Source: a virus
Reading direction: 5' to 3' (one strand)
IMG/VR virus record: IMGVR_UViG_3300043788_000225
Location: 1 to 37,335 of that record
DNA: 37,335 nucleotides
Part shown: positions 6,742 to 36,473 of the stretch, in pieces
How positions within the stretch are numbered: the first letter of the stretch is position 1
How the letters are laid out: every line of letters starts with the position of its first letter
The notes under the pieces: model-generated
Databases searched by the model: none
Told to the model about the DNA's origin: nothing
What the model saw: only the letters and a program-made list of their open reading frames with translations
Made by a program: the position numbers and the translations under genes

Positions 6742-6792
6742 TCTGGCAAAGCGTTTAGAATGTAACAGGAATTGATCCAAGGATGGATTAAA

Positions 6793-8952
6793 ATGCCAAG
6801 ACGTGACCCGGAGTTATGCTCCAAGATCAGGGATCGAGTCGACAAGTGGGATAAATACTGGAGAATCAACCGGACTGAGTATTACGTCTGGATTGACTTC
6901 ATTATGGGGACGCAATGGCTTGAGGATGAATCCAAGCTCTTCGAGCGTTACAACAAGATTCCACTCGAAGTAAACAAGCTCGGCGTCCTGTACAACCATA
7001 TCATTGGCGACCAGATTCAGAATACCCCCAGTCTGCAGATATCCCCGGACGAGGATGTGCCTCCAGAAGAGGCAAACGTCCGCGCGGCTCTGATCAAGAA
7101 TGTAACCCTGAACTCCGACACCAAGACCATATTTCAGCGCGCCTTCGGACAGGCTGTCTGTGCCGGGTATGGCGCATGGCGTGTGTCGCCCGAATATCTG
7201 GATGATGATGCCTTTGAACAGGAGCCTCATATCTACGGTTTCGATGATCCCAACCGCTGCTACTGGGATCTGTCTGCCCAGCATGTGACGAAGGTCGATG
7301 GCATGCATTGCGGATTCCGCACCCGCATGTCCCGCAAGGCATTCCGAGACATTTACGGGAAAGAAATTGAAAGCCAGATCGGATCAACATCCATCACCGA
7401 AGATGCCACCATGGCATTCGCTGATGATGATTCCATCACGATCATTGAGGATTACGAGAAGGAAGGAAAGAAGGGAAAAATATACAAGCTGTCTGATGGA
7501 ACTGTAATCGATGATGAACAGATGAAGAACATGCAGAAGGTAAAGGTCGGAAAGAAAAAATACCTTCTGAATAATGGGCAACAGGTAACAGTATTTGAAG
7601 AGCGCGAGGTTGTTCGCTATACGATAAAACAGAAGCAGATTGCTGGTGACTTTGTGCTTGAGGAAGCTGATTTTCCCACAAAGAAAAACCTGCCAGTTGT
7701 TTTCCTTGATATGCGCTCCTATTACACGAAGTCAGGACAGCAGATCACGCGGTCATTCTTCAAGGATGTGAAAGACGCCCAGAGATACCTGAACTATCTG
7801 GCAACCCAGTCCGCCTACATCATGAAGATTTCCAGATACGACCAGTTCATGGCACCAAGAAAAAGCGTAGCATCCGCTGACGTTGAGCAGATGTGGCGCG
7901 ATCCGTCTGTGGTCAATGGTGCGCTTGTCTACGATGAAACACCAAGCGGCGCCAAGCCAGAACAGCTTCGTCCTGCAGAGCTCTCGCACTCGTTGCTCCA
8001 GCAATATGACCGTACCCTGATGGACATTCAGAGTGGCACTGGCATATACAACACCCAACTTGGGGAGATCGGAAACGAAGTGTCCGGTACCGCTATCGAA
8101 GGCAGGAACAAGCGTGGCGCCAAGAATACCCAGATCCCCAGAACCTCGGTGGACATCGCCATTGCGGTGACTGGCGAGATCATCAACGAGATGATCCCGG
8201 TTCTCTACGATACCCAGCGCACCCTTGTTCTGCCCATGGAGCAGTCATCCGAGCAGCGTGTTGAGATCAACAAGCCTGCAGACCCGTACGGCATGCAGAT
8301 CGAAAACAATATGACTCGGGGAAAGTACAAGATACGCCTGAAACCTGGCGTCAGCTACGAAGGGCAGAAAGAAGAGGCGCTCGGATCACTGCAGCTCGTC
8401 CTGAATGCTGATCAGTCCGGTCAGGTGTTCCCGATGATTGCCGACCTGTACGCCGAGAATCTACCGCTGGATAACAACATGGAGATCAGGAACCGCCTGC
8501 GCACTATGGTGTCCCCAGACATTATAGAGGCCGGCAAGACTGGCAAGCCATTGCCTCCAAAACCTCCGCAGCCTGATCCACAGATGATGCTCGTTCAGCT
8601 GAAGCAGCAGGAGCTCCAGCAAAAAGCACAGGATGCCCAGATGCAGGCCCAGCAAAAGATGAAGGAACTGGATCTGAAGCAGGCTGAACTCCAACGCAAG
8701 GCCATCGAGTCCCATCAGGACATGTCCATGCAGTGGGAAAAGCTGGAGGGAGAGAAACAGGAGGCTGCGGCAGAGTTGCAGGCAGCTGTCCTGAGGTATC
8801 AGGCAGAAGGCCAGAGGATTGGTGCTGACCTGCAGATCAATCACAGCAACCAGATCATGAGAATGCTGGAGCATACCGGCAAGATTTTCCACGAGAAGGA
8901 CATGCAGTCCAAAGAACACGCACATCAGAGCAAAAACAGGTCACAGGATTAA
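6793..8952 (+). CDS. Portal protein, P22 gp1-like
   Basis: 719 aa, close to the 725 aa of P22 gp1, and far longer than other portal families. It forms the dodecameric DNA channel at one capsid vertex, binding terminase and then the tail. The wing and stem region is followed by a Pro-rich hinge near residues 590-605 and a long Gln/Glu/Lys-rich coiled coil to the C terminus, matching the P22 'barrel' helix that reaches into the capsid. ATG 6793 has AAGGAT (6779-6784) at 8 bases; an in-frame TTG at 6772 is less likely. Confidence 0.93.
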   Translation: MPRRDPELCSKIRDRVDKWDKYWRINRTEYYVWIDFIMGTQWLEDESKLFERYNKIPLEVNKLGVLYNHIIGDQIQNTPSLQISPDEDVPPEEANVRAALIKNVTLNSDTKTIFQRAFGQAVCAGYGAWRVSPEYLDDDAFEQEPHIYGFDDPNRCYWDLSAQHVTKVDGMHCGFRTRMSRKAFRDIYGKEIESQIGSTSITEDATMAFADDDSITIIEDYEKEGKKGKIYKLSDGTVIDDEQMKNMQKVKVGKKKYLLNNGQQVTVFEEREVVRYTIKQKQIAGDFVLEEADFPTKKNLPVVFLDMRSYYTKSGQQITRSFFKDVKDAQRYLNYLATQSAYIMKISRYDQFMAPRKSVASADVEQMWRDPSVVNGALVYDETPSGAKPEQLRPAELSHSLLQQYDRTLMDIQSGTGIYNTQLGEIGNEVSGTAIEGRNKRGAKNTQIPRTSVDIAIAVTGEIINEMIPVLYDTQRTLVLPMEQSSEQRVEINKPADPYGMQIENNMTRGKYKIRLKPGVSYEGQKEEALGSLQLVLNADQSGQVFPMIADLYAENLPLDNNMEIRNRLRTMVSPDIIEAGKTGKPLPPKPPQPDPQMMLVQLKQQELQQKAQDAQMQAQQKMKELDLKQAELQRKAIESHQDMSMQWEKLEGEKQEAAAELQAAVLRYQAEGQRIGADLQINHSNQIMRMLEHTGKIFHEKDMQSKEHAHQSKNRSQD

Positions 8953-8978: not shown

Positions 8979-9878
8979 ATGGGACAGACACATAGCGTAG
9001 ATGATTTATTAGTCAAGGTGAGCAATGAACAGACAGGAATTGATAACGGAGAGCCTCAGGTTGCTGCCCAATCCCAGCCAGAGCCCCCAGAAACAGTGGA
9101 ACAGCCGGAAGTGGTTGCAGCGGAAGATCAATCTGTTCCAGAAGGACATGACCCTGAACTTTCCGAAGCCCCGAAAGAAGAACCGCAGGCCGAAGATGAG
9201 CAATCAGCAGATAGTGCTGTGGATGGCTCTCCTATTGATGAGTATGGAAACCCTGTAGAGAAGCCCAAGACCTATACTGAAGAAGAAGTTCAGCGCATGA
9301 TCCGCGACCGTCTGTCGCGTGGCAAGCATGCAGAGCAGCCAACCCAGCAGCAGGTGCAGAAGGATGTGGAAGGGTTCAAGGCTGATCCCAACAGCGAAGA
9401 CGCATGGGAAGTACAGCTTGAACAGTTCATCGAGAAGACCATAGACAAGCGGCAGCAGAAACAGACTGAAGCCCAGTGGAAACAGCAGGAAGCTCAAAAG
9501 CAAGTAGAGTTTGAAACCAAGTTTACCTCTGGAATGGGTAAATATCAGGATTTCCACCAGGTTGTGTCAGGGAAACCCATTACTGATGCCATGATGATGG
9601 CTACCCGAGGCATGGAAAACCCTGCCGCATTCATCTATGCCGCATGTAAGCTGAAACCCGGCGAGATTGCCCGAATTGCTGCCATTGCTGACCCCTCAGA
9701 ACAGATGGTTGATATTGGACGACTGGATGCCCAGATGCGCAAGGAACATGCCAAGGTAAGTGCTGCTCCAAAGCCTGTGCAGGCTGTGAAAGGTGACATG
9801 CCGGTGAAACAGAACGACATGCCTTCCCTTGAGACCAGAATCCATCAATATGCCAAGCAGAAGTTTGCAAGGAAGTAG
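8979..9878 (+). CDS. Scaffolding protein, P22 gp8-like
   Basis: 299 aa, nearly the length of P22 gp8 (303 aa). It directs procapsid assembly and leaves before DNA enters. The N-terminal ~90 residues are acidic and Pro/Gln/Glu-rich. A segment Glu-Tyr-Gly-Asn-Pro-Val-Glu then Glu-Glu-Val-Gln-x-Met-Ile-x-Asp-Arg-Leu-Ser-Arg-Gly, seen in many podovirus scaffolds, follows, then Gln/Lys-rich helices and a basic C terminus (Lys-Gln-Lys-Phe-Ala-Arg-Lys). A basic C-terminal helix contacts the coat protein in P22. Its place between portal and coat genes fits. Confidence 0.88.
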   Translation: MGQTHSVDDLLVKVSNEQTGIDNGEPQVAAQSQPEPPETVEQPEVVAAEDQSVPEGHDPELSEAPKEEPQAEDEQSADSAVDGSPIDEYGNPVEKPKTYTEEEVQRMIRDRLSRGKHAEQPTQQQVQKDVEGFKADPNSEDAWEVQLEQFIEKTIDKRQQKQTEAQWKQQEAQKQVEFETKFTSGMGKYQDFHQVVSGKPITDAMMMATRGMENPAAFIYAACKLKPGEIARIAAIADPSEQMVDIGRLDAQMRKEHAKVSAAPKPVQAVKGDMPVKQNDMPSLETRIHQYAKQKFARK

Positions 9879-11477: not shown

Positions 11478-11792
11478 TTATTTTGTTATGTTGTGAATCA
11501 GAAGTCCCTGAATGTTCTTCATGAGAGATTGCTTGAATGACTCATCGTTCAGCATTCTCTTCACTACTTCAGTTACCAGTTTGGTTTTCTGTTTCTTGAA
11601 TTCCTTTTGCAAGACTTCTTTCACATCCTTTTTGATCAGATGGTAAAAGTGATTCTGGATTTCCTCCTGCAATGCATTTTCAAGAAGAAGACTGATGGTT
11701 TTTTGTGGAACCACCTCGGGAGGATTCTTGTCGAGTGCCGCAATCCTGTTTTCAAAGGCCAGCACGAGGGTTTTAACATCAATCCGGGACAT
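11478..11792 (-). CDS. Reverse cassette gene 4: helical protein
   Basis: 104 aa. The sequence is nearly all helix-forming, with Lys/Glu-rich amphipathic stretches (residues ~40-95) that could form a coiled coil. AAGGAA lies 7 bases before the ATG. It ends one base from the stop of the + strand gene at 11476, so the two transcripts converge without a visible terminator. It is the last gene of a four-gene reverse cassette. Not recognised. Confidence 0.72.
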   Translation of the reverse strand: MSRIDVKTLVLAFENRIAALDKNPPEVVPQKTISLLLENALQEEIQNHFYHLIKKDVKEVLQKEFKKQKTKLVTEVVKRMLNDESFKQSLMKNIQGLLIHNITK

Positions 11793-11795
11793 GTT

Positions 11796-12041
11796 TTATT
11801 CCTTGAGGTTGAAGTGTTTGTAAAAGGGTTTGTCAGGTGCGCCCATTTGTTCTTTTGGCACCAGAACGATATTTTTTAAGCGTTCATTTTTGTCAATGTT
11901 GATTTCCTCGAACCGTAGCTCACCATTCATCAGTTTTGGGTAAAATTCTGCGAACTGTAGTTTTTGCTGGTATGAGAGATTATTCCAGAGTATTTCAGCT
12001 TCCGGAGTATCCATTTTGCATGGTGGTGTGATGTTTTTCAT
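11796..12041 (-). CDS. Reverse cassette gene 3: hypothetical protein
   Basis: 81 aa, acidic N-terminal half and basic C-terminal end (Phe-Tyr-Lys-His-Phe-Asn-Leu-Lys-Glu). AAGGAA precedes the ATG. The Asn-Leu-Ser-Tyr-Gln-Gln-Lys-Leu-Gln segment is probably helical. It lies between a membrane protein gene and a helical protein gene on the same strand. Not recognised. Confidence 0.7.
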   Translation of the reverse strand: MKNITPPCKMDTPEAEILWNNLSYQQKLQFAEFYPKLMNGELRFEEINIDKNERLKNIVLVPKEQMGAPDKPFYKHFNLKE

Positions 12042-12068
12042 AAGTTGAACTTCCTTGTTCAGTGATAA

Positions 12069-12311
12069 TTACATTTTTCCGAAATAGTATCCGATAACCA
12101 GAGTTGCCATTGATGGAAGAATTGTCCTGCAAGCCTCAAAAACATTATTTCCGGGTCTGGCAAGCTCGGTTATTGCTCCAAGAATGCACATCACCATCAG
12201 AAAAAACAGAATTGTCTTCGCAAAGCGAAGTCTGTCCTTGGGATTGATGTCTTGCCTTCTTGCTGGCAAATCCAGTGGCTCAAGTTCATCATCCAGTAAT
12301 TCATCTGTCAT
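12069..12311 (-). CDS. Reverse cassette gene 2: small membrane protein
   Basis: 80 aa. The N terminus is acidic (cytoplasmic by the positive-inside rule, with Arg/Lys just before the first helix). Two apolar segments follow, at ~30-48 (Phe-Phe-Leu-Met-Val-Met-Cys-Ile-Leu-Gly) and ~62-77 (Ile-Leu-Pro-Ser-Met-Ala-Thr-Leu-Val-Ile-Gly-Tyr-Tyr-Phe). The ATG overlaps the RHH stop (ATGA). It could be a holin or a superinfection-exclusion protein; neither is shown. Confidence 0.75.
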   Translation of the reverse strand: MTDELLDDELEPLDLPARRQDINPKDRLRFAKTILFFLMVMCILGAITELARPGNNVFEACRTILPSMATLVIGYYFGKM

Positions 12312-12532
12312 CCATTTAACCCCGTAATTAATATCTGGGTCTGTTTTCCTCCCGGCGTTTCCAATATGACTTTTTCGCCTTTGACGATGGCATCAATAAG
12401 GATATCGGTGATACCAACGGCGCGCCTTACTGCGTCAGACCTGCTGGGAGCTTTTACGATAGCTTTTATTTTATCCACCTGATCAAGGGTGTTTTGTCTC
12501 ATTCGTACCTGCAAGACTTCTGCTTCTGCCAT
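12308..12532 (-). CDS. Reverse cassette gene 1: ribbon-helix-helix regulator
   Basis: 74 aa. The pattern is that of MetJ/Arc-type RHH DNA-binding proteins: a short strand with Val-Arg-Met-Arg, helix Thr-Leu-Asp-Gln-Val-Asp-Lys-Ile, turn Pro-Ser-Arg-Ser, helix Asp-Ala-Val-Arg-Arg-Ala-Val-Gly-Ile. RHH dimers insert the strand in the major groove of short palindromes. GAGGA is a few bases before the ATG at 12532; a longer frame to 12589 would run through the promoter. Two identical palindromes lie in its promoter, so it probably represses itself. Confidence 0.82.
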   Translation of the reverse strand: MAEAEVLQVRMRQNTLDQVDKIKAIVKAPSRSDAVRRAVGITDILIDAIVKGEKVILETPGGKQTQILITGLNG

Positions 12533-12546
12533 TTCAATTTCCTCTT

Positions 12547-12589
12547 TTGTATTACAATCCAATTCTAACTGTATTACAGCTTGCGTCAA
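12547..12589 (-). promoter_or_regulatory. Promoter with twin palindromic operators for the reverse cassette
   Basis: On the reverse strand, TTGACG (12589-12584) and TAGAAT (12567-12562) are 16 bases apart. Two 11-base palindromes share the core TGTAWTACA: 12547-12557 (at the likely transcription start) and 12569-12579 (between -35 and -10). Their centres are 22 bp apart, two helical turns. That is how paired RHH dimers bind side by side. Confidence 0.75.
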
Positions 12590-12600
12590 TGTGTTCTGTG

Positions 12601-12629
12601 TTGATTCTATGCAATAACAGGTGCATAAT
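12601..12629 (+). promoter_or_regulatory. Sigma70-type promoter for the coat-protein gene
   Basis: TTGATT at 12601-12606 and CATAAT at 12624-12629 are 17 bases apart. It is divergent from the cassette promoter, whose -35 is only 11 bases away, so the two may influence each other. The leader to the coat start is about 130 bases. Confidence 0.68.
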
Positions 12630-12714
12630 TTTACACAAGCGCGTAGCTACGGGTTGCCCCGCTTCAACCGAAAATGGTGCGTACAGTCTTCCACCGGACA
12701 ATGCTGAAAAGGAT

Positions 12715-12729
12715 GGCCAATGATTGGCC
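12715..12729 (+). other. Hairpin in the coat-protein leader
   Basis: GGCCAA (12715-12720) and TTGGCC (12724-12729) pair around a TGA loop. No T run follows, so it is not a terminator. It sits about 20 bases before the ribosome site and may stabilise the mRNA or tune translation. Confidence 0.5.
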
Positions 12730-12763
12730 TAATTTCTAATTGTCTACGGAAGGACACGACGCC

Positions 12764-14008
12764 ATGTCGAACTCATTTCAAACAACGCAATATATTCTCG
12801 ACGAAACCTTCGTCCGTTTTATTAACTATCTGAATTTTGCCAAGGTCGCAAACCGCAACCTTGAAGGCGATTTCAAGGGGCTGAAATACGCAACCGGCCA
12901 GACCATCAATTATCGTCTCGAAGAGCGGTATCTCGGTGGAGATGGTGCGACTGCCGTATCGGAAGCCCGTGTGCAGATCGTCCGTCCCCTTACCATTGAT
13001 CAGCAGTTCAACACAATGGTCGAGTTCTCCGGCTTTGAGCTGACCTTCGACCGCGCCCGTGACCAGCCCTATCTGGATATGATGTTGAATCCACGCGCCA
13101 AGCGGCTGGCCAATAAAGTCGAGCAGTTCATTGCCACCACCAACTTCCAGAAGCAGGTCTATCAGGCTTATGGAACTCCCGGTGTTGCGATTGATCAGAA
13201 CACCGTCTTCCAGACCGATGCCTATATGACCGAACTGGGTATTCCTGAAGATGGAAACCGGTACTGGGCCAACTCCCCATCCGTTTCCGCTACCTTGACC
13301 AACAGCCTGTACAACGTGTTCAACATGACCGTGAACCGCGGTGCATTGCTGGACGGATTTATCGGGCATCTGTCCGGGTTTGACTTCTTCAAGTCCAACT
13401 TCGTACAGCGTCAGATTGCTGGTGTGGGTCAGGCCGGTGGTTCACCTCCGACTGGTTACAAATTGGGCGGTGTTGTCACTGGCGGTCCAGTATCCAGTGG
13501 AAGCTCACTGTCCGTCAGCGGACTGGTGGCTTCACAGGCTGATGCCTTCAATGAAGGCGACATCATCACAGTCGCCCCGGCATCCGATGTGTTCATGGTC
13601 AATCCGTTGACCTACGAACCACTGGCACAGACAGCACAGTTTGTTGTGACCGCACAGGTCGCATCAGATGGTGGTGGTCTGGCAACCATTCCAATCAGCC
13701 CGGCTATTGTCGTAAGTGGTGCGCGCCAGAACATCTCTGCCGCTATCCCGAACGGTGCCCAGCTATATCTGGCCGACGATCACAATGTTTCCCTAGCGTT
13801 CCATAATCAGGCAGTCGTTTTTGCGGCTCCTCCGATCAAGGAACTGAAGGGTGGCGTTGAGGCTGTTACCTCGTATAGCGACCTCTACAAAATGGCCATG
13901 ACCTACTCCCTTGGCGCTGACATCCGTAACTATGTGCAGTTGGATCGTATCGACATCATCTGCGGTGTCGCGATCAACCCAGAGTTCGCTGTCACTGTCA
14001 TGTCTTAA
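12764..14008 (+). CDS. Major capsid protein, P22 gp5-like
   Basis: 414 aa, close to P22 coat protein (430 aa). It forms the icosahedral shell (HK97 fold). The N terminus opens with Gln-Thr-Thr-Gln-Tyr-Ile, a helix, then Lys-Tyr-Ala-Thr-Gly-Gln-Thr-Ile and Tyr-Arg-x-Glu as in P22-type coats. The middle (residues ~225-320) is Gly/Ser-rich and probably forms the inserted domain. ATG 12764 has GGAAGGA about 10 bases upstream. It has its own promoter and is followed at once by a strong terminator, fitting the most abundant virion protein. Confidence 0.9.
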   Translation: MSNSFQTTQYILDETFVRFINYLNFAKVANRNLEGDFKGLKYATGQTINYRLEERYLGGDGATAVSEARVQIVRPLTIDQQFNTMVEFSGFELTFDRARDQPYLDMMLNPRAKRLANKVEQFIATTNFQKQVYQAYGTPGVAIDQNTVFQTDAYMTELGIPEDGNRYWANSPSVSATLTNSLYNVFNMTVNRGALLDGFIGHLSGFDFFKSNFVQRQIAGVGQAGGSPPTGYKLGGVVTGGPVSSGSSLSVSGLVASQADAFNEGDIITVAPASDVFMVNPLTYEPLAQTAQFVVTAQVASDGGGLATIPISPAIVVSGARQNISAAIPNGAQLYLADDHNVSLAFHNQAVVFAAPPIKELKGGVEAVTSYSDLYKMAMTYSLGADIRNYVQLDRIDIICGVAINPEFAVTVMS

Positions 14009-29118: not shown

Positions 29119-29384
29119 TCTGTTTCCTCTCTCATTTGTTTTAGATACCACGCAAGACCCAGAAGATAGCGGTCACTGACGGCCTCTCCTTCCATGATCC
29201 TGCGCATTGTTTCATGGCATATTTCAGCAAGTCTGTTGCCAGACAAGGCGCAACTCGCCATGGCCTCTCGCATCATCATTGCCCGACGAAGATCGTATTT
29301 AAGATATTCTTTTACATATTCCATGGCGGAAGGAGCAGCAGGATGAAATTCTCCAATAGCCAATGTGCCGTTTTCTTCTTTCAT
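29115..29384 (-). CDS. Hypothetical helical early protein
   Basis: 89 aa. Mostly helical with several Met residues and a single His-Glu-Thr-Met segment. The ATG at 29384 overlaps the upstream stop (ATGA) and has GGTGG before it. The order of starts and stops here shows a tightly coupled operon. Not recognised. Confidence 0.68.
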   Translation of the reverse strand: MKEENGTLAIGEFHPAAPSAMEYVKEYLKYDLRRAMMMREAMASCALSGNRLAEICHETMRRIMEGEAVSDRYLLGLAWYLKQMREETE

Positions 29385-29602
29385 AGTTTCCACCTTTTCC
29401 TGAATATCTTCGCAACAATAGTTACAAGGATTCCAATGAAAGCCAACATAACAAAAACCAGAACCAATATGGCAAACAGTGGTAATGTCGAGCTGGATAT
29501 AATGGCGGGGAATATAATCCCGGTCATCCCAAAAATCGCCAGAATGGTACTCAACATCACCATCATTTCAAGGCGAAGTGAATTACCTTTTTTCTTGGCC
29601 AT
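29381..29602 (-). CDS. Small two-helix membrane protein
   Basis: 73 aa. It starts with a basic tail (Lys-Lys-Lys) and has two apolar helices, ~12-36 and ~42-64, then a basic end (Arg-Lys-Arg-Trp-Lys). Both ends are positive, so both probably face the cytoplasm. Size and layout fit a class II holin, but it lies far from the endolysin and beside an SPFH lipoprotein, so it may instead be a partner of that protein. It overlaps the SPFH gene by 20 bases. Confidence 0.72.
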   Translation of the reverse strand: MAKKKGNSLRLEMMVMLSTILAIFGMTGIIFPAIISSSTLPLFAILVLVFVMLAFIGILVTIVAKIFRKRWKL

Positions 29603-30443
29603 TGGTATTCCCCTGCACGTTTACAAAAGGAATTGCTGATGAACCTGTCATGGTAGGCAATTTGCCGTCCCATTTCAGTATTGCCTGATAGCGCACAAAC
29701 TCCGGCGTCAATGACTCTGCAAGAATCTTGTTAGCCTTGGCCTGTGACTCAGCGTTAATCATCACGCGCTTGCCATTGGCTTCTGCCACAACTACGGTTT
29801 TCTGTGCTTCAGCGCGCGCGGTGGCGACCTCATTTTCAACCTTCATGGCATTCTGCGAAGCCTGTATTTTGGCATTAATGGAATGGACCACGGTTTCTGG
29901 TAGCTGGAATGATCCAACAAGATAAATTTTCTCAACATCAATCCCATTGTCGCTTGCTTCTTTCTTGACGAGCTCATTGACTTTGCTGATAAACTGTTCT
30001 TTCTGAGCGCCGTATATCTGCTCGACAGTCATAGTGCTGGACACTTCATTCATTGCATCACGAACCATGTTGTGCAGGAACGTATTGGTAATCTCGTCTA
30101 TCCCCAAGCGGTATTTGGTAAACACCTTAACCACATTATCTGGTTGAATACGATAAGTGATACCAGCATCAGTACGAATAGAAAGACCCTCGCTTGTCTG
30201 CATCGTAATGGATTGCTCATCCTTCCAAGAATAGTTCTGTAAAAAGGTGGGAAACAGATAAAGCTCAGAGTTCCAACCAAGGTAATATCGCCCCACGCCC
30301 ACAGACTGCTCTGACACACCTTTGTCGCTCCCATAGAGGTTCACAATCACGCCTCTATAGCCTGCCGGAACCTTGCTGCACCCCGCAATACCCAACATTG
30401 AAATCGCTGCCATACCCAGTGCTGCTTTCTTCATCCTATTCAT
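29583..30443 (-). CDS. SPFH (prohibitin-like) lipoprotein
   Basis: 286 aa. The N terminus is a lipoprotein signal: Lys-Lys, an apolar stretch, and lipobox Ile-Ala-Gly-Cys with the lipidated Cys at 22. The body is an SPFH domain (Gly-Tyr-Arg-Gly-Val-Ile-Val-Asn, Ile-Arg-Thr-Asp-Ala-Gly-Ile-Thr-Tyr-Arg-Ile) followed by the long Glu/Ala/Arg coiled coil of the prohibitin family (residues ~200-255). SPFH proteins form large membrane-attached rings. A lipidated version points to membrane anchoring. The role in a phage is unknown. The ATG at 30443 overlaps the upstream gene. Confidence 0.85.
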   Translation of the reverse strand: MNRMKKAALGMAAISMLGIAGCSKVPAGYRGVIVNLYGSDKGVSEQSVGVGRYYLGWNSELYLFPTFLQNYSWKDEQSITMQTSEGLSIRTDAGITYRIQPDNVVKVFTKYRLGIDEITNTFLHNMVRDAMNEVSSTMTVEQIYGAQKEQFISKVNELVKKEASDNGIDVEKIYLVGSFQLPETVVHSINAKIQASQNAMKVENEVATARAEAQKTVVVAEANGKRVMINAESQAKANKILAESLTPEFVRYQAILKWDGKLPTMTGSSAIPFVNVQGNTNGQEKR

Positions 30444-30837
30444 TTTCCATGCCCTCATCTTTGCATCCATTGTTAACCCATTGAATCGCTTCGTTGTGGC
30501 CTTTTTCAGACTCTTTCCATGTTGCGTATCGTTTACAATAAACCTCTGAACCACCTTTCCTTGAATTAAAAACCATTGTCTCGAATATCAATGGGTTGTG
30601 GTTTTCAGAATCAAAAAACCCAAAGTTATGATCAATTCCCAAAAAAACTGTCGAAATCCACTTTCCTTTTACCTCATCCTGCTTGACGATTCTTTTCTCA
30701 AGTTCATTTTCAAAGAAGTCTGACCATTCCATAAGATCAGCAGGAATAGCATTATTGTTTTCATCCAGAATGAACTTATCTTTTTTCTTTATTAATTTTT
30801 CAAAATCAGGATATTTTGAAAGATCAGGCACATACAT
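30436..30837 (-). CDS. Conserved phage protein (Ser-Thr-Val-Phe-Leu-Gly family)
   Basis: 133 aa. It contains Trp-Ile-Ser-Thr-Val-Phe-Leu-Gly-Ile-Asp-His, Leu-Ile-Phe-Glu-Thr-Met-Val-Phe and Arg-Tyr-Ala-Thr-Trp-x-Glu-Ser-x-x-Gly-His, a pattern seen in many phage proteins of unknown function. Its gene ends inside the start of the SPFH gene. Confidence 0.8.
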   Translation of the reverse strand: MYVPDLSKYPDFEKLIKKKDKFILDENNNAIPADLMEWSDFFENELEKRIVKQDEVKGKWISTVFLGIDHNFGFFDSENHNPLIFETMVFNSRKGGSEVYCKRYATWKESEKGHNEAIQWVNNGCKDEGMENE

Positions 30838-30843
30838 TTTTAA

Positions 30844-31233
30844 TCATCCCCATACCAATCCGGTGCTTGCGCACATATCACAGTCTGTCAGGTCTTTGCA
30901 GCGCGGGCAGACGAATGGTTTTTTGTCTCCATGAGAGCCTCTACATTGCAATATTTTCTCTATTTTTATTAGGCGTACTTCTAAATTTGAATTTTCAAGG
31001 TCTGTGATTCTTTCGTCATAATCTGATTCTTCCAGCTTACAAACACACACTGAAATTCCGGTAACCCTGTCTTCAAGGTCTTCGATTCTTTGGAACAGCT
31101 TTTCAACCCCATCATACAAATGATCAATCTTGTGCGCCATGGCAAACAAATCATGAAGCAGCGGTGGCGCGTCTGCGTCTGGCTCTTTGGCGCTCAATTT
31201 TTTACACCAGCATTTATCCGTGCAGTTTGTCAT
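30844..31233 (-). CDS. Coiled-coil protein with C-terminal zinc motif
   Basis: 129 aa. Residues ~30-95 form a heptad-like coiled coil (Val-Glu-Lys-Leu-Phe-Gln-Arg-Ile-Glu-Asp-Leu-Glu). The end has Cys-Pro-Arg-Cys, Cys-Asp-Met-Cys and Gly, a zinc-ribbon pair close to the DnaJ cysteine-rich style. Two more cysteines sit at the N terminus. The start overlaps the upstream gene by 20 bases. Not recognised. Confidence 0.7.
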   Translation of the reverse strand: MTNCTDKCWCKKLSAKEPDADAPPLLHDLFAMAHKIDHLYDGVEKLFQRIEDLEDRVTGISVCVCKLEESDYDERITDLENSNLEVRLIKIEKILQCRGSHGDKKPFVCPRCKDLTDCDMCASTGLVWG

Positions 31234-31675
31234 TGTTTAAAAATCCTTTTTGAATAAGACCGATTAAAATTTTTGCCAGACAGTCAGCGAGTTTTTCGTC
31301 ATGTGCCTTCACAGATGTTCTGAGCTGCGTTAACGGATTGGCTGCTTCAATACCGTCCATGGTGTCACAGACATACGAGGCTATGTACTGAATGTTTTTT
31401 GCGGAGCGTTTTTTGATCTCAAGCCAGAAATTATTGAATGGCGCGTATTGTTCCCCAATATTTATCCATGATGGAATCATATTCAGAAGTTCAGATACAG
31501 AATAGGCTGAATACAGTTTAAATACTCGTTCGTCTACCGGACTGAAAGGAACATATCTCACGCCATAACAGTCGTCATTTTCATAATGCCAGACAAAAAG
31601 ACTGTTCTGTTCACATTTAAGGTCTTTTAGTCGCGTGGCTAAATTTAGACTGACGACTTGATCTTCAAGGTGCAT
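31214..31675 (-). CDS. Conserved phage protein (Val-Ser-Leu-x-Leu-Ala family)
   Basis: 153 aa. It opens Leu-Glu-Asp-Gln-Val-Val-Ser-Leu-Asn-Leu-Ala-x-x-Leu-Lys-Asp-Leu, contains a Ser-Val-Ser-Glu-Leu-Leu-Asn-Met-Ile-Pro segment, and ends with a Leu-Ala-x-Cys-Leu-Ala-Lys-Ile-Leu-Ile-Gly-Leu helix. Many phages carry proteins with this order; none has an assigned function. It is the first gene after the structured island. Confidence 0.78.
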   Translation of the reverse strand: MHLEDQVVSLNLATRLKDLKCEQNSLFVWHYENDDCYGVRYVPFSPVDERVFKLYSAYSVSELLNMIPSWINIGEQYAPFNNFWLEIKKRSAKNIQYIASYVCDTMDGIEAANPLTQLRTSVKAHDEKLADCLAKILIGLIQKGFLNNDKLHG

Positions 31676-31825: not shown

Positions 31826-32536
31826 TCAGTCATATATTTCCAGTATGTGTGAAATCCTGCCGGCAAGCGCCCGCGATTCATCATCAGGAAAAATATCCAG
31901 TGTATTAGACTCAATGCCAGCGATAATATTTTCCGCAACTGACATTGGCGTGGATTTTCTCACATCAAGACTTTCAGTCATTCCGGTATCAACATATCCC
32001 GGGTAAACCCCAAAAATCTTTATACCGGTTCCAGCTGATCGATGCCTTATGCCCTGTATCAGGACATTCAGAGCAGCCTTTGATGCGCAATATGTCTCTA
32101 TCTCGGGTATCAGACAAAAACTGGCTATGGAGAGCATATTAACTATTGCTGATGATTCCTTTGATTTCAGATGTGGCCAGAATTCGTGACAAAGTTTGTG
32201 TACTGCAAAATAGTTCACAGACATTTCCATGAATGACGCCTTGATGGACTCTTCATCAAGAAATGCTTTTTTTAATTCAATTCCGGCATTGTTCACCAGT
32301 ATGTCTACTTCTCTACAATAATCAGCACACACTTTTACTTCACTGCTGTTCGTAACATCCAGCTGATATGGAACAACAAATCCCGGATATTTTTCCTGAA
32401 GTTTTGTAACTGACTCAATATGAAGGTCCGCAGCAAATATATGTGACACATTTCGGCTTACAAATTGATCCACCAGACAGGAACCGATGCCGCCACCGGC
32501 ACCGGTTATAAGGACTTTTTTTCCTGCAAGATTCAT
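31826..32536 (-). CDS. Short-chain dehydrogenase/reductase
   Basis: 236 aa, full length for the SDR family. The cofactor motif Thr-Gly-Ala-Gly-Gly-Gly-Ile-Gly is at 11-18, Leu-Asp-Val at 59-61, Asn-Asn-Ala-Gly at 82-85, catalytic Asn108, Ser136, Tyr149 and Lys153 (Tyr-Cys-Ala-Ser-Lys), and Pro-Gly-Tyr-Val-Asp-Thr-Gly follows. Asp37 after the second strand suggests NAD rather than NADP. All catalytic residues are present, so it should be active. Substrate unknown. Its start overlaps the previous gene (ATGA). Confidence 0.9.
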   Translation of the reverse strand: MNLAGKKVLITGAGGGIGSCLVDQFVSRNVSHIFAADLHIESVTKLQEKYPGFVVPYQLDVTNSSEVKVCADYCREVDILVNNAGIELKKAFLDEESIKASFMEMSVNYFAVHKLCHEFWPHLKSKESSAIVNMLSIASFCLIPEIETYCASKAALNVLIQGIRHRSAGTGIKIFGVYPGYVDTGMTESLDVRKSTPMSVAENIIAGIESNTLDIFPDDESRALAGRISHILEIYD

Positions 32537-36275: not shown

Positions 36276-36473
36276 TTACTCATGGTGCGATTCTACCAAA
36301 CTACCACCAGATGTCAACTTGTTGTCGAATCTTTTTTTATACCGCAGGATGGTCTGCGTGATTATTTCGTTCATGGACAATTCCTGTGCAGCTGACTGGT
36401 GTTTCAGCCATACCCACAGTTCCTTATCTAGTCTCAGGTTAATGCACTTGTTGTTTGTGTCATTTCTGGCCAT
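36276..36473 (-). CDS. Arc/CopG-type ribbon-helix-helix regulator
   Basis: 65 aa. It has the Arc/Mnt order: Cys-Ile-Asn-Leu-Arg-Leu strand, Asp-Lys-Glu-Leu-Trp-Val-Trp-Leu helix, then Ser-Met-Asn-Glu-Ile-Ile-Thr-Gln-Thr-Ile-Leu helix and a basic tail. In P22, Arc and Mnt are regulators of the same fold. It is the first gene of the leftward transcript and is likely autoregulated through CTACC-containing boxes in its promoter and at its 3' end. Confidence 0.87.
   Translation of the reverse strand: MARNDTNNKCINLRLDKELWVWLKHQSAAQELSMNEIITQTILRYKKRFDNKLTSGGSLVESHHE
36290..36312. promoter_or_regulatory. Operator-like box at the 3' end of the RHH gene
   Basis: ATTCTACCAAA (36290-36300) followed by CTACC makes a direct repeat of CTACC 8 bases apart. 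The identical 11-base box occurs in the RHH promoter (36522-36532). It lies about 30 bases upstream of the 27-residue peptide gene. Nothing else explains the repeat. Confidence 0.55.

What the first reader, a model, noticed from the sequence alone, without database searches (positions are those of the whole stretch)
11478..12589. Self-regulated reverse-strand cassette inside the late region
Four genes (RHH regulator, two-helix membrane protein, two unknown proteins) run against the late genes between the tiny head genes and the coat gene. The promoter has two 11-base palindromes with core TGTAWTACA exactly 22 bp apart, one in the spacer and one at the start site. This looks like a moron expressed outside the late programme, perhaps for exclusion, anti-defence or persistence.
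Basis: partly seen in the sequence, partly recalled or inferred. Interest (0 to 1): 0.72.

Follow-up and report, generated by a model that had tools for sequence, protein, structure and literature searches.

The report
Swappable reverse cassette beside coat-gene RNA
An uncultured short-tailed phage carries a small self-regulated set of accessory genes in a slot that its relatives fill with different cargo, and the slot is bounded by the coat gene's own promoter and a previously unlisted RNA leader made of two tandem pseudoknots.

Summary
Four real genes (RHH regulator, two-helix membrane protein, U3, U4) run against the late genes at 11478-12532. Their 10/12 sigma70-like promoter carries CTGTAATACAG in the spacer and TTGTAATACAA at the start site, 22 bp apart, a pairing never seen in 200 shuffles. 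One correction: the RHH starts at ATG 12532, not TTG 12589, which lies inside the -35 box. The only other virus with this RHH (53% identical) has three TGTAAT half-sites in its otherwise different promoter, which supports autoregulation. The cassette is optional: among 80 coat relatives the scaffold-coat gap runs from 166 bp to 7.3 kb and holds changing cargo (HNH nucleases, a methyltransferase, ParDE, AlpA-type regulators, tRNAs). 'Moron-like' is supported; exclusion, anti-defence and persistence are untested. P22 immI is the closest working analogue. U3 is always on the opposite strand (34 contigs). Unexpectedly, the slot's downstream border is a conserved coat promoter plus, from the predicted start site, two tandem pseudoknots of one architecture (12637-12699). 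They occur in dozens of relatives with strong compensatory change, give no Rfam match, and are absent from the isolated phages examined. This leader is the most novel part. The function of both cassette and leader is inferred.

The parts
12308..12532 (-). RHH regulator, 74 aa, ATG start with GAGG ribosome site
   Evidence: PHROG 8557 E=3e-7; Pfam RHH_1 15.0 bits, below its 20.5 cut-off; AlphaFold beta-alpha-alpha order at low confidence; 53% identical homologue in L008
12069..12311 (-). Small membrane protein (TM), 80 aa, two hydrophobic helices; ATGA overlap with the RHH stop
   Evidence: homologues in L008, L030, L083
11796..12041 (-). U3, 81 aa, conserved unknown protein of this phage clade, always opposite to the late genes
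   Evidence: 24 of 80 coat relatives plus 10 further contigs, all minus; AlphaFold alpha-alpha-beta-beta, pLDDT 74, no solved-fold match
11478..11792 (-). U4, 104 aa, coiled, unknown; last gene, ends 1 bp from the convergent late gene
   Evidence: homologues in L011 and L067 (minus) and L038 and L053 (plus)
12562..12589 (-). Cassette promoter TTGACG-16-TAGAAT
   Evidence: 10 of 12 matches
12569..12579 (.). Operator-like palindrome CTGTAATACAG in the promoter spacer
12547..12557 (.). Operator-like palindrome TTGTAATACAA at the predicted start site
   Evidence: the half-site TGTAAT recurs three times in the L008 RHH promoter
12601..12629 (+). Coat-gene promoter TTGATT-17-CATAAT, divergent from the cassette promoter, conserved in relatives
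12637..12669 (+). Pseudoknot 1 of the coat leader: AAGCG/CGCTT and GGTTG/CAACC, starting at the predicted transcription start
12676..12699 (+). Pseudoknot 2 of the coat leader: GGTG/CACC and GTCT/GGAC, same architecture as pseudoknot 1
12700..12763 (+). Rest of the leader: hairpin GGCCAATGATTGGCC and ribosome site of the coat gene
12764..14008 (+). Coat protein gene (P22 fold), downstream border of the cargo slot
   Evidence: Pfam P22_CoatProtein E=1.8e-15; PHROG 283

Best explanation
This is one of many alternative cargo sets in a hypervariable slot between the scaffold and coat genes of a clade of uncultured P22-fold phages. Shown by sequence: the four genes are real, form an operon opposite to the late genes, and are optional. 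Inferred: host RNA polymerase reads the sigma70-like promoter as soon as DNA enters, when no RHH is present. RHH then binds the two TGTAATACA sites, in the spacer and at the start, and shuts the promoter. This gives a short early pulse of the membrane protein, U3 and U4, which most likely act on the host envelope or on incoming phages (superinfection exclusion or host takeover). The coat gene does not need read-through past the slot. It has its own promoter, and its mRNA begins with two tandem pseudoknots, which I infer protect its 5' end and/or control translation. That would let cargo come and go without harming capsid production.
For: Gap 166 bp to 7308 bp, median 1885, in 54 relatives with both ends; cargo differs between relatives. 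RHH, TM and U4 are sporadic. Operator pair beyond chance, and TGTAAT half-sites recur in the L008 RHH promoter: 3 within 40 bp, 4 elsewhere in 6.7 kb, none of 2000 shuffles reached 3. RHH-TM ATGA overlap in both viruses. Conserved coat promoter and leader. Tandem pseudoknots in 41 of 62 leaders versus 0-1 in shuffles. S1 helices, which were not in the model, 94.9% paired versus 27-54% when slid, with 62 versus 20 double-change cells, on mostly held-out sequences. Isolated distant relatives have no slot and no leader.
Against: No transcript, binding or phenotype data exist. The minus-strand promoter signal in relatives is only marginally above shuffles (mean 8.25 versus 7.88), so a separate promoter is well supported only for the window and L008. 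The role of TM, U3 and U4 rests on no recognised family. No terminator follows U4. The host is unknown.
Confidence: 0.62

Rival explanations
1. The RHH and membrane protein form a toxin-antitoxin-like pair: RHH is antitoxin and autorepressor, TM is a membrane toxin that keeps the phage or blocks rivals.
For: Gene order, ATGA overlap and autoregulated promoter resemble type II modules. A relative, L079, carries a ParD-like RHH plus ParE-like toxin in the same slot and orientation.
Against: TM occurs without the RHH, directly behind the coat promoter, in L030 and L083. TM matches no toxin family.
Confidence: 0.12
2. TM is a holin or lysis regulator, and the cassette tunes lysis.
For: Two short membrane helices. 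No transmembrane ORF was predicted in the stretch around the endolysin at 2094-2648. Unrelated coiled-coil membrane proteins occupy the same place in other relatives, one weakly XhlA-like (E=3e-5, below cut-off).
Against: Relatives with an almost empty gap still need to lyse. The gene lies opposite to the late genes and under its own promoter. Another two-helix protein exists at 29381-29602.
Confidence: 0.15
3. RHH binding or RNA polymerase occupancy at the back-to-back promoters controls the coat promoter as well, making the cassette a timer for coat expression.
For: The two -35 boxes are only 11 bp apart (12589 and 12601), so two polymerases could not sit there at once.
Against: The spacing is not kept in L008. 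Most relatives have the coat promoter without any RHH. The operators lie 22 bp or more from the coat -35.
Confidence: 0.15
4. The cassette is transcriptionally inert drift material, and its promoter and palindromes are chance.
For: Cargo in this slot is highly unstable. Promoter-like sites in the region are no more frequent than in shuffles (2 versus 2.7).
Against: Protein-level constraint in all four genes, U3 orientation fixed in 34 contigs, operator half-sites shared with L008.
Confidence: 0.06

Closest known systems
Salmonella phage P22 immI region (sieA, mnt, arc, ant)
   Same: Checked in NC_002371: RHH repressors and a minus-strand superinfection-exclusion gene sit inside the late genes of a P22-fold phage; the Arc operator lies within the Pant promoter span and the Mnt operator next to it, at the start.
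   Different: P22 places it between genes 16 and 9, has two RHH repressors, an antirepressor and an antisense RNA. Here there is one RHH, no antirepressor, different partner proteins, and the slot is between scaffold and coat.
HK97 gp15-type moron encoding a small exclusion protein (cited in PMC10883804)
   Same: Optional small membrane-protein gene inserted in a late operon.
   Different: No sequence similarity established; no own terminator found here; RHH autoregulator in front.
CopG/Arc/MetJ-type RHH autorepressors
   Same: Short beta-alpha-alpha protein heading its own operon; palindromic operators over its promoter.
   Different: Below the Pfam RHH_1 cut-off; extra C-terminal beta hairpin; only one near relative found.
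ParDE-type module of relative L079, same slot
   Same: RHH gene first, same strand and position.
   Different: Its partner is a ParE-like toxin; here the partner is a membrane protein that also occurs without the RHH.
T4 gene 32 leader pseudoknot (from my own knowledge; PMC535899 treats gene 32 autoregulation)
   Same: Pseudoknot in the 5' leader of an abundant phage protein's mRNA.
   Different: Here two tandem pseudoknots of another loop layout (zero-length loop 3), starting at the transcription start of a coat gene.

Membership tests
Moron (accessory phage transcription unit) | Absent from otherwise similar relatives | tested here: met
Moron (accessory phage transcription unit) | Own promoter | tested here: met
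   10/12 sigma70-like site with two operators; by sequence only
Moron (accessory phage transcription unit) | Own terminator | tested here: not met
   no terminator-like site at the cassette end near 11478
Moron (accessory phage transcription unit) | Expressed independently of the lytic programme | not testable with these tools
   needs RNA data
RHH autorepressor | RHH family profile above curated cut-off | tested here: not met
   Pfam RHH_1 15.0 bits versus 20.5; PHROG 8557, unknown function, E=3e-7
RHH autorepressor | Beta-alpha-alpha order | tested here: inconclusive
   predicted in that order but pLDDT 65, no fold match
RHH autorepressor | Repeated operators over its own promoter, conserved with the protein | tested here: met
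P22 immI-like region | RHH regulator plus membrane exclusion gene inside late genes | tested here: inconclusive
   layout similar; exclusion function unknown
P22 immI-like region | Antirepressor Ant between genes 16 and 9 | tested here: not met
Type II toxin-antitoxin module | Partner belongs to a toxin family and does not occur without the antitoxin | tested here: not met
   no family match; TM without RHH in L030, L083
Known structured RNA family (coat leader) | Match to an Rfam 15 model | tested here: not met
   no relevant match up to E=5 in the window stretch, none up to 0.5 in eight relatives

The most novel reading that the evidence does not exclude
The coat leader at 12637-12763 is an undescribed RNA family: two tandem pseudoknots of identical architecture (S1a ending in G, then NGUA, S2a, a short loop ending in C, S1b, S2b with no spacer) that form the very 5' end of the coat mRNA and control its stability or translation, perhaps cooperatively through a bound protein or ligand.
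Probability: 0.6. Interest if true: 0.75.

Novelty: new variant of a known kind. Interest (0 to 1): 0.56.

Why it matters
It turns a vague 'moron' into a defined cargo slot with a conserved border, seen across dozens of uncultured phages, and it shows the same position being filled by unrelated regulator and membrane-protein pairs and by TA genes. The border itself, a dedicated coat promoter with a tandem-pseudoknot leader, offers a direct test of how a phage can keep capsid output constant while its late operon is repeatedly interrupted by opposite-strand cargo. If the leader proves to be an mRNA cap, an autoregulatory site or a ligand switch, it is a new RNA family with a simple reporter assay.

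Tried and rejected
Searches for the RHH and TM in 50,697 phage records found nothing. The only plasmid match of the RHH, Piscirickettsia at E=0.01, was not pursued beyond its gene context. PADLOC gave no match for the four proteins. AlphaFold of U3 and RHH gave no solved-fold relative. Pfam hits of U4 (MSP7_C and others, below cut-off) look like coiled-coil noise. RNAalifold on the raw leader alignment found nothing useful because the helices are pseudoknotted and L1 varies in length; a descriptor search resolved this. A first descriptor search without the NGUA motif was too permissive (29-37 of 62 shuffled leaders passed) and was replaced. A general promoter excess before minus-strand cargo in relatives was tested and is marginal. 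Five literature searches gave no description of this leader or slot in the held library.

Full report
What the window is. The window is a 37,335-base virus record of unnamed origin. It encodes a P22-type portal (6772-8952, Pfam E=7e-96), a scaffold-like protein (8979-9878) and a P22-fold coat protein (12764-14008). Late genes run on the plus strand, and most genes from about 27 kb to 36.5 kb on the minus strand. No integrase or phage repressor was seen among the ORFs scanned; not every ORF was scanned.

The observation. Four minus-strand genes lie at 11478-12532. The RHH reading frame can be extended to a TTG at 12589, but that codon lies inside the -35 box; the ATG at 12532 with a GAGG ribosome site is the likely start. 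The membrane-protein start overlaps the RHH stop (ATGA), as it also does in relative L008. Differences between homologues concentrate in third codon positions, so the genes are real. The promoter TTGACG-16-TAGAAT carries CTGTAATACAG in its spacer and TTGTAATACAA at the predicted start. Palindromes of this length alone are common, but a same-core pair within 40 bp occurs once in the window and in none of 200 shuffles.

Autoregulation. The RHH has one close relative in 2.9 million viral contigs, in L008 (53% identical). The L008 promoter (TTGTAA-17-TATAAT by reading the sequence) looks different from that of the window, yet has three TGTAAT half-sites within 40 bp; there are only four others in its 6.7 kb, and none of 2000 shuffles of the stretch reached three. 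Protein and half-site thus persist together while the promoter around them changes, as expected of a repressor and its operator. Binding itself is not shown.

An optional cassette in a hypervariable slot. Among 80 coat relatives (72-86% identical coat), the scaffold-coat gap ranges from 166 to 7308 bp in the 54 with both ends; 10 are 250 bp or shorter. A minus-strand gene lies in the gap of 52 of 75 informative loci and is the gene next to the coat in 47. Cargo includes a family of endonuclease-VII-like HNH proteins (15 members), a cytosine methyltransferase, AlpA/HTH_17 regulators, an XhlA-like membrane protein, a ParD-like RHH with a ParE-like toxin (L079), and two tRNAs (L022). U3 is the commonest shared minus-strand gene: 24 of 80 relatives plus 10 further contigs, always opposite to the late genes. 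Several contigs are near-identical, so this is fewer independent events. U4 occurs in two relatives on the plus strand, so it is not tied to the cassette. The pattern 'regulator, small membrane protein, U3' recurs with unrelated parts, for example an AlpA-like protein followed by a coiled-coil membrane protein and U3 in L031/L032.

Function. None of the four proteins has a recognised function. The closest working analogue is P22 immI, which I checked in the record: RHH repressors and the minus-strand exclusion gene sieA sit between late genes 16 and 9, the Arc operator lying within the Pant promoter span. By that analogy, a self-limiting early pulse of a membrane protein, with superinfection exclusion or host takeover as outcome, is the most likely reading. 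It is inference. A toxin-antitoxin pair is less likely because the membrane protein occurs without the RHH in L030 and L083. A holin role is possible but not needed in relatives with an almost empty gap.

The border: a tandem-pseudoknot leader. The cargo stops at a conserved coat promoter (TTGATT-17-CATAAT, 12601-12629) followed by a conserved leader. Nested folding missed the structure. Reading the alignment showed an H-type pseudoknot, and a descriptor search then showed two in tandem with the same architecture: S1a ending in G, then NGUA, S2a, a 2-4 nt loop ending in C, then S1b and S2b with no nucleotide between them. In the window these are 12637-12669 and 12676-12699, and this is the only such tandem in the window on either strand. 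Of 62 distinct leaders, 41 have both, against 0 or 1 in each of five sets of dinucleotide shuffles.

Tests of the leader. On 31 aligned leaders, 91.1% of cells pair against 37-48% when partners are slid, with 129 double-change cells against 42.6 in shuffles; that set was chosen for pairing, so the figure is biased upward. For a fairer test, a covariance model containing only the S2 hairpins was searched over 69 loci, most of them not used in building it. It found at most one match per locus: 56 hits over 756,943 bases at E up to 0.1. The S1 helices, which the model does not contain, are 94.9% paired on these matches, against 27-54% when slid, with 62 double-change cells against 20 (0 of 500 shuffles). 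A pattern scan of viral contigs for pseudoknot 2 gave 20 new stretches; all lie 41-73 nt upstream of a homologous coat gene, and pseudoknot 1 was found in 13 of the 18 with enough sequence, against 24 of 360 shuffles. Rfam has no match. Distant isolated relatives (VvAW1, P26218, X14, CV-1-33) have about 6-30 bp between the gene before the coat and the coat, and no match to the model.

Position of the leader. The first S1 strand starts most often 6 nt after the -10 hexamer (19 of 36 leaders; 7 nt in the window), which is where transcription should begin. The coat mRNA would therefore start with its 5' end locked in a pseudoknot. Protection from 5'-end-dependent decay, translational control by a phage protein, or ligand sensing would all fit; none is tested.

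Verdict. Observation confirmed with one start-codon correction; interpretation partly supported. The cassette is a new member of a known kind of phage accessory operon. The bounding tandem-pseudoknot leader is new to Rfam and to the literature I could search, and it raises the interest.

Noticed in passing
window 12637-12763 (+), and dozens of coat relatives: Coat-gene leader made of two tandem pseudoknots of the same architecture, starting at the predicted transcription start; strong compensatory change, no Rfam match.
   Followed up: yes
L013 7741-7954, L029 8068-8279, L067 7732-7952, L080 1205-1415: Group I introns at the start of the coat gene in several relatives (Rfam RF00028, 79-87 bits).
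   Followed up: partly
L022 7260-7411 (-): Two tRNA genes on the minus strand inside the cargo slot, next to U3.
   Followed up: no
L080 865-932 (-): Match to the int-alpA RNA family inside the cargo slot; AlpA-like regulators also head the minus-strand cargo of L031 and L032.
   Followed up: no
L079 7238-7739 (-): ParD-like RHH antitoxin and ParE-like toxin genes in the same slot and orientation.
   Followed up: partly
window 31214-31675 (-): Early-region protein beginning MHLEDQV resembles a family (cluster 7) that appears as cargo in the scaffold-coat slot of other relatives.
   Followed up: no
window 29583-30554 (-): Protein matching PHROG 200 (lipoprotein, E=2e-78) beside a two-helix membrane protein at 29381-29602; one relative carries a Band_7/SPFH protein in the cargo slot.
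   Followed up: no
window 31826-32536 (-): FabG-like reductase (PHROG 3142, auxiliary metabolic gene) in the early region.
   Followed up: no
window 36276-36473 (-): Small protein that by eye looks like a second Arc-like RHH in the early region; no Pfam match.
   Followed up: no
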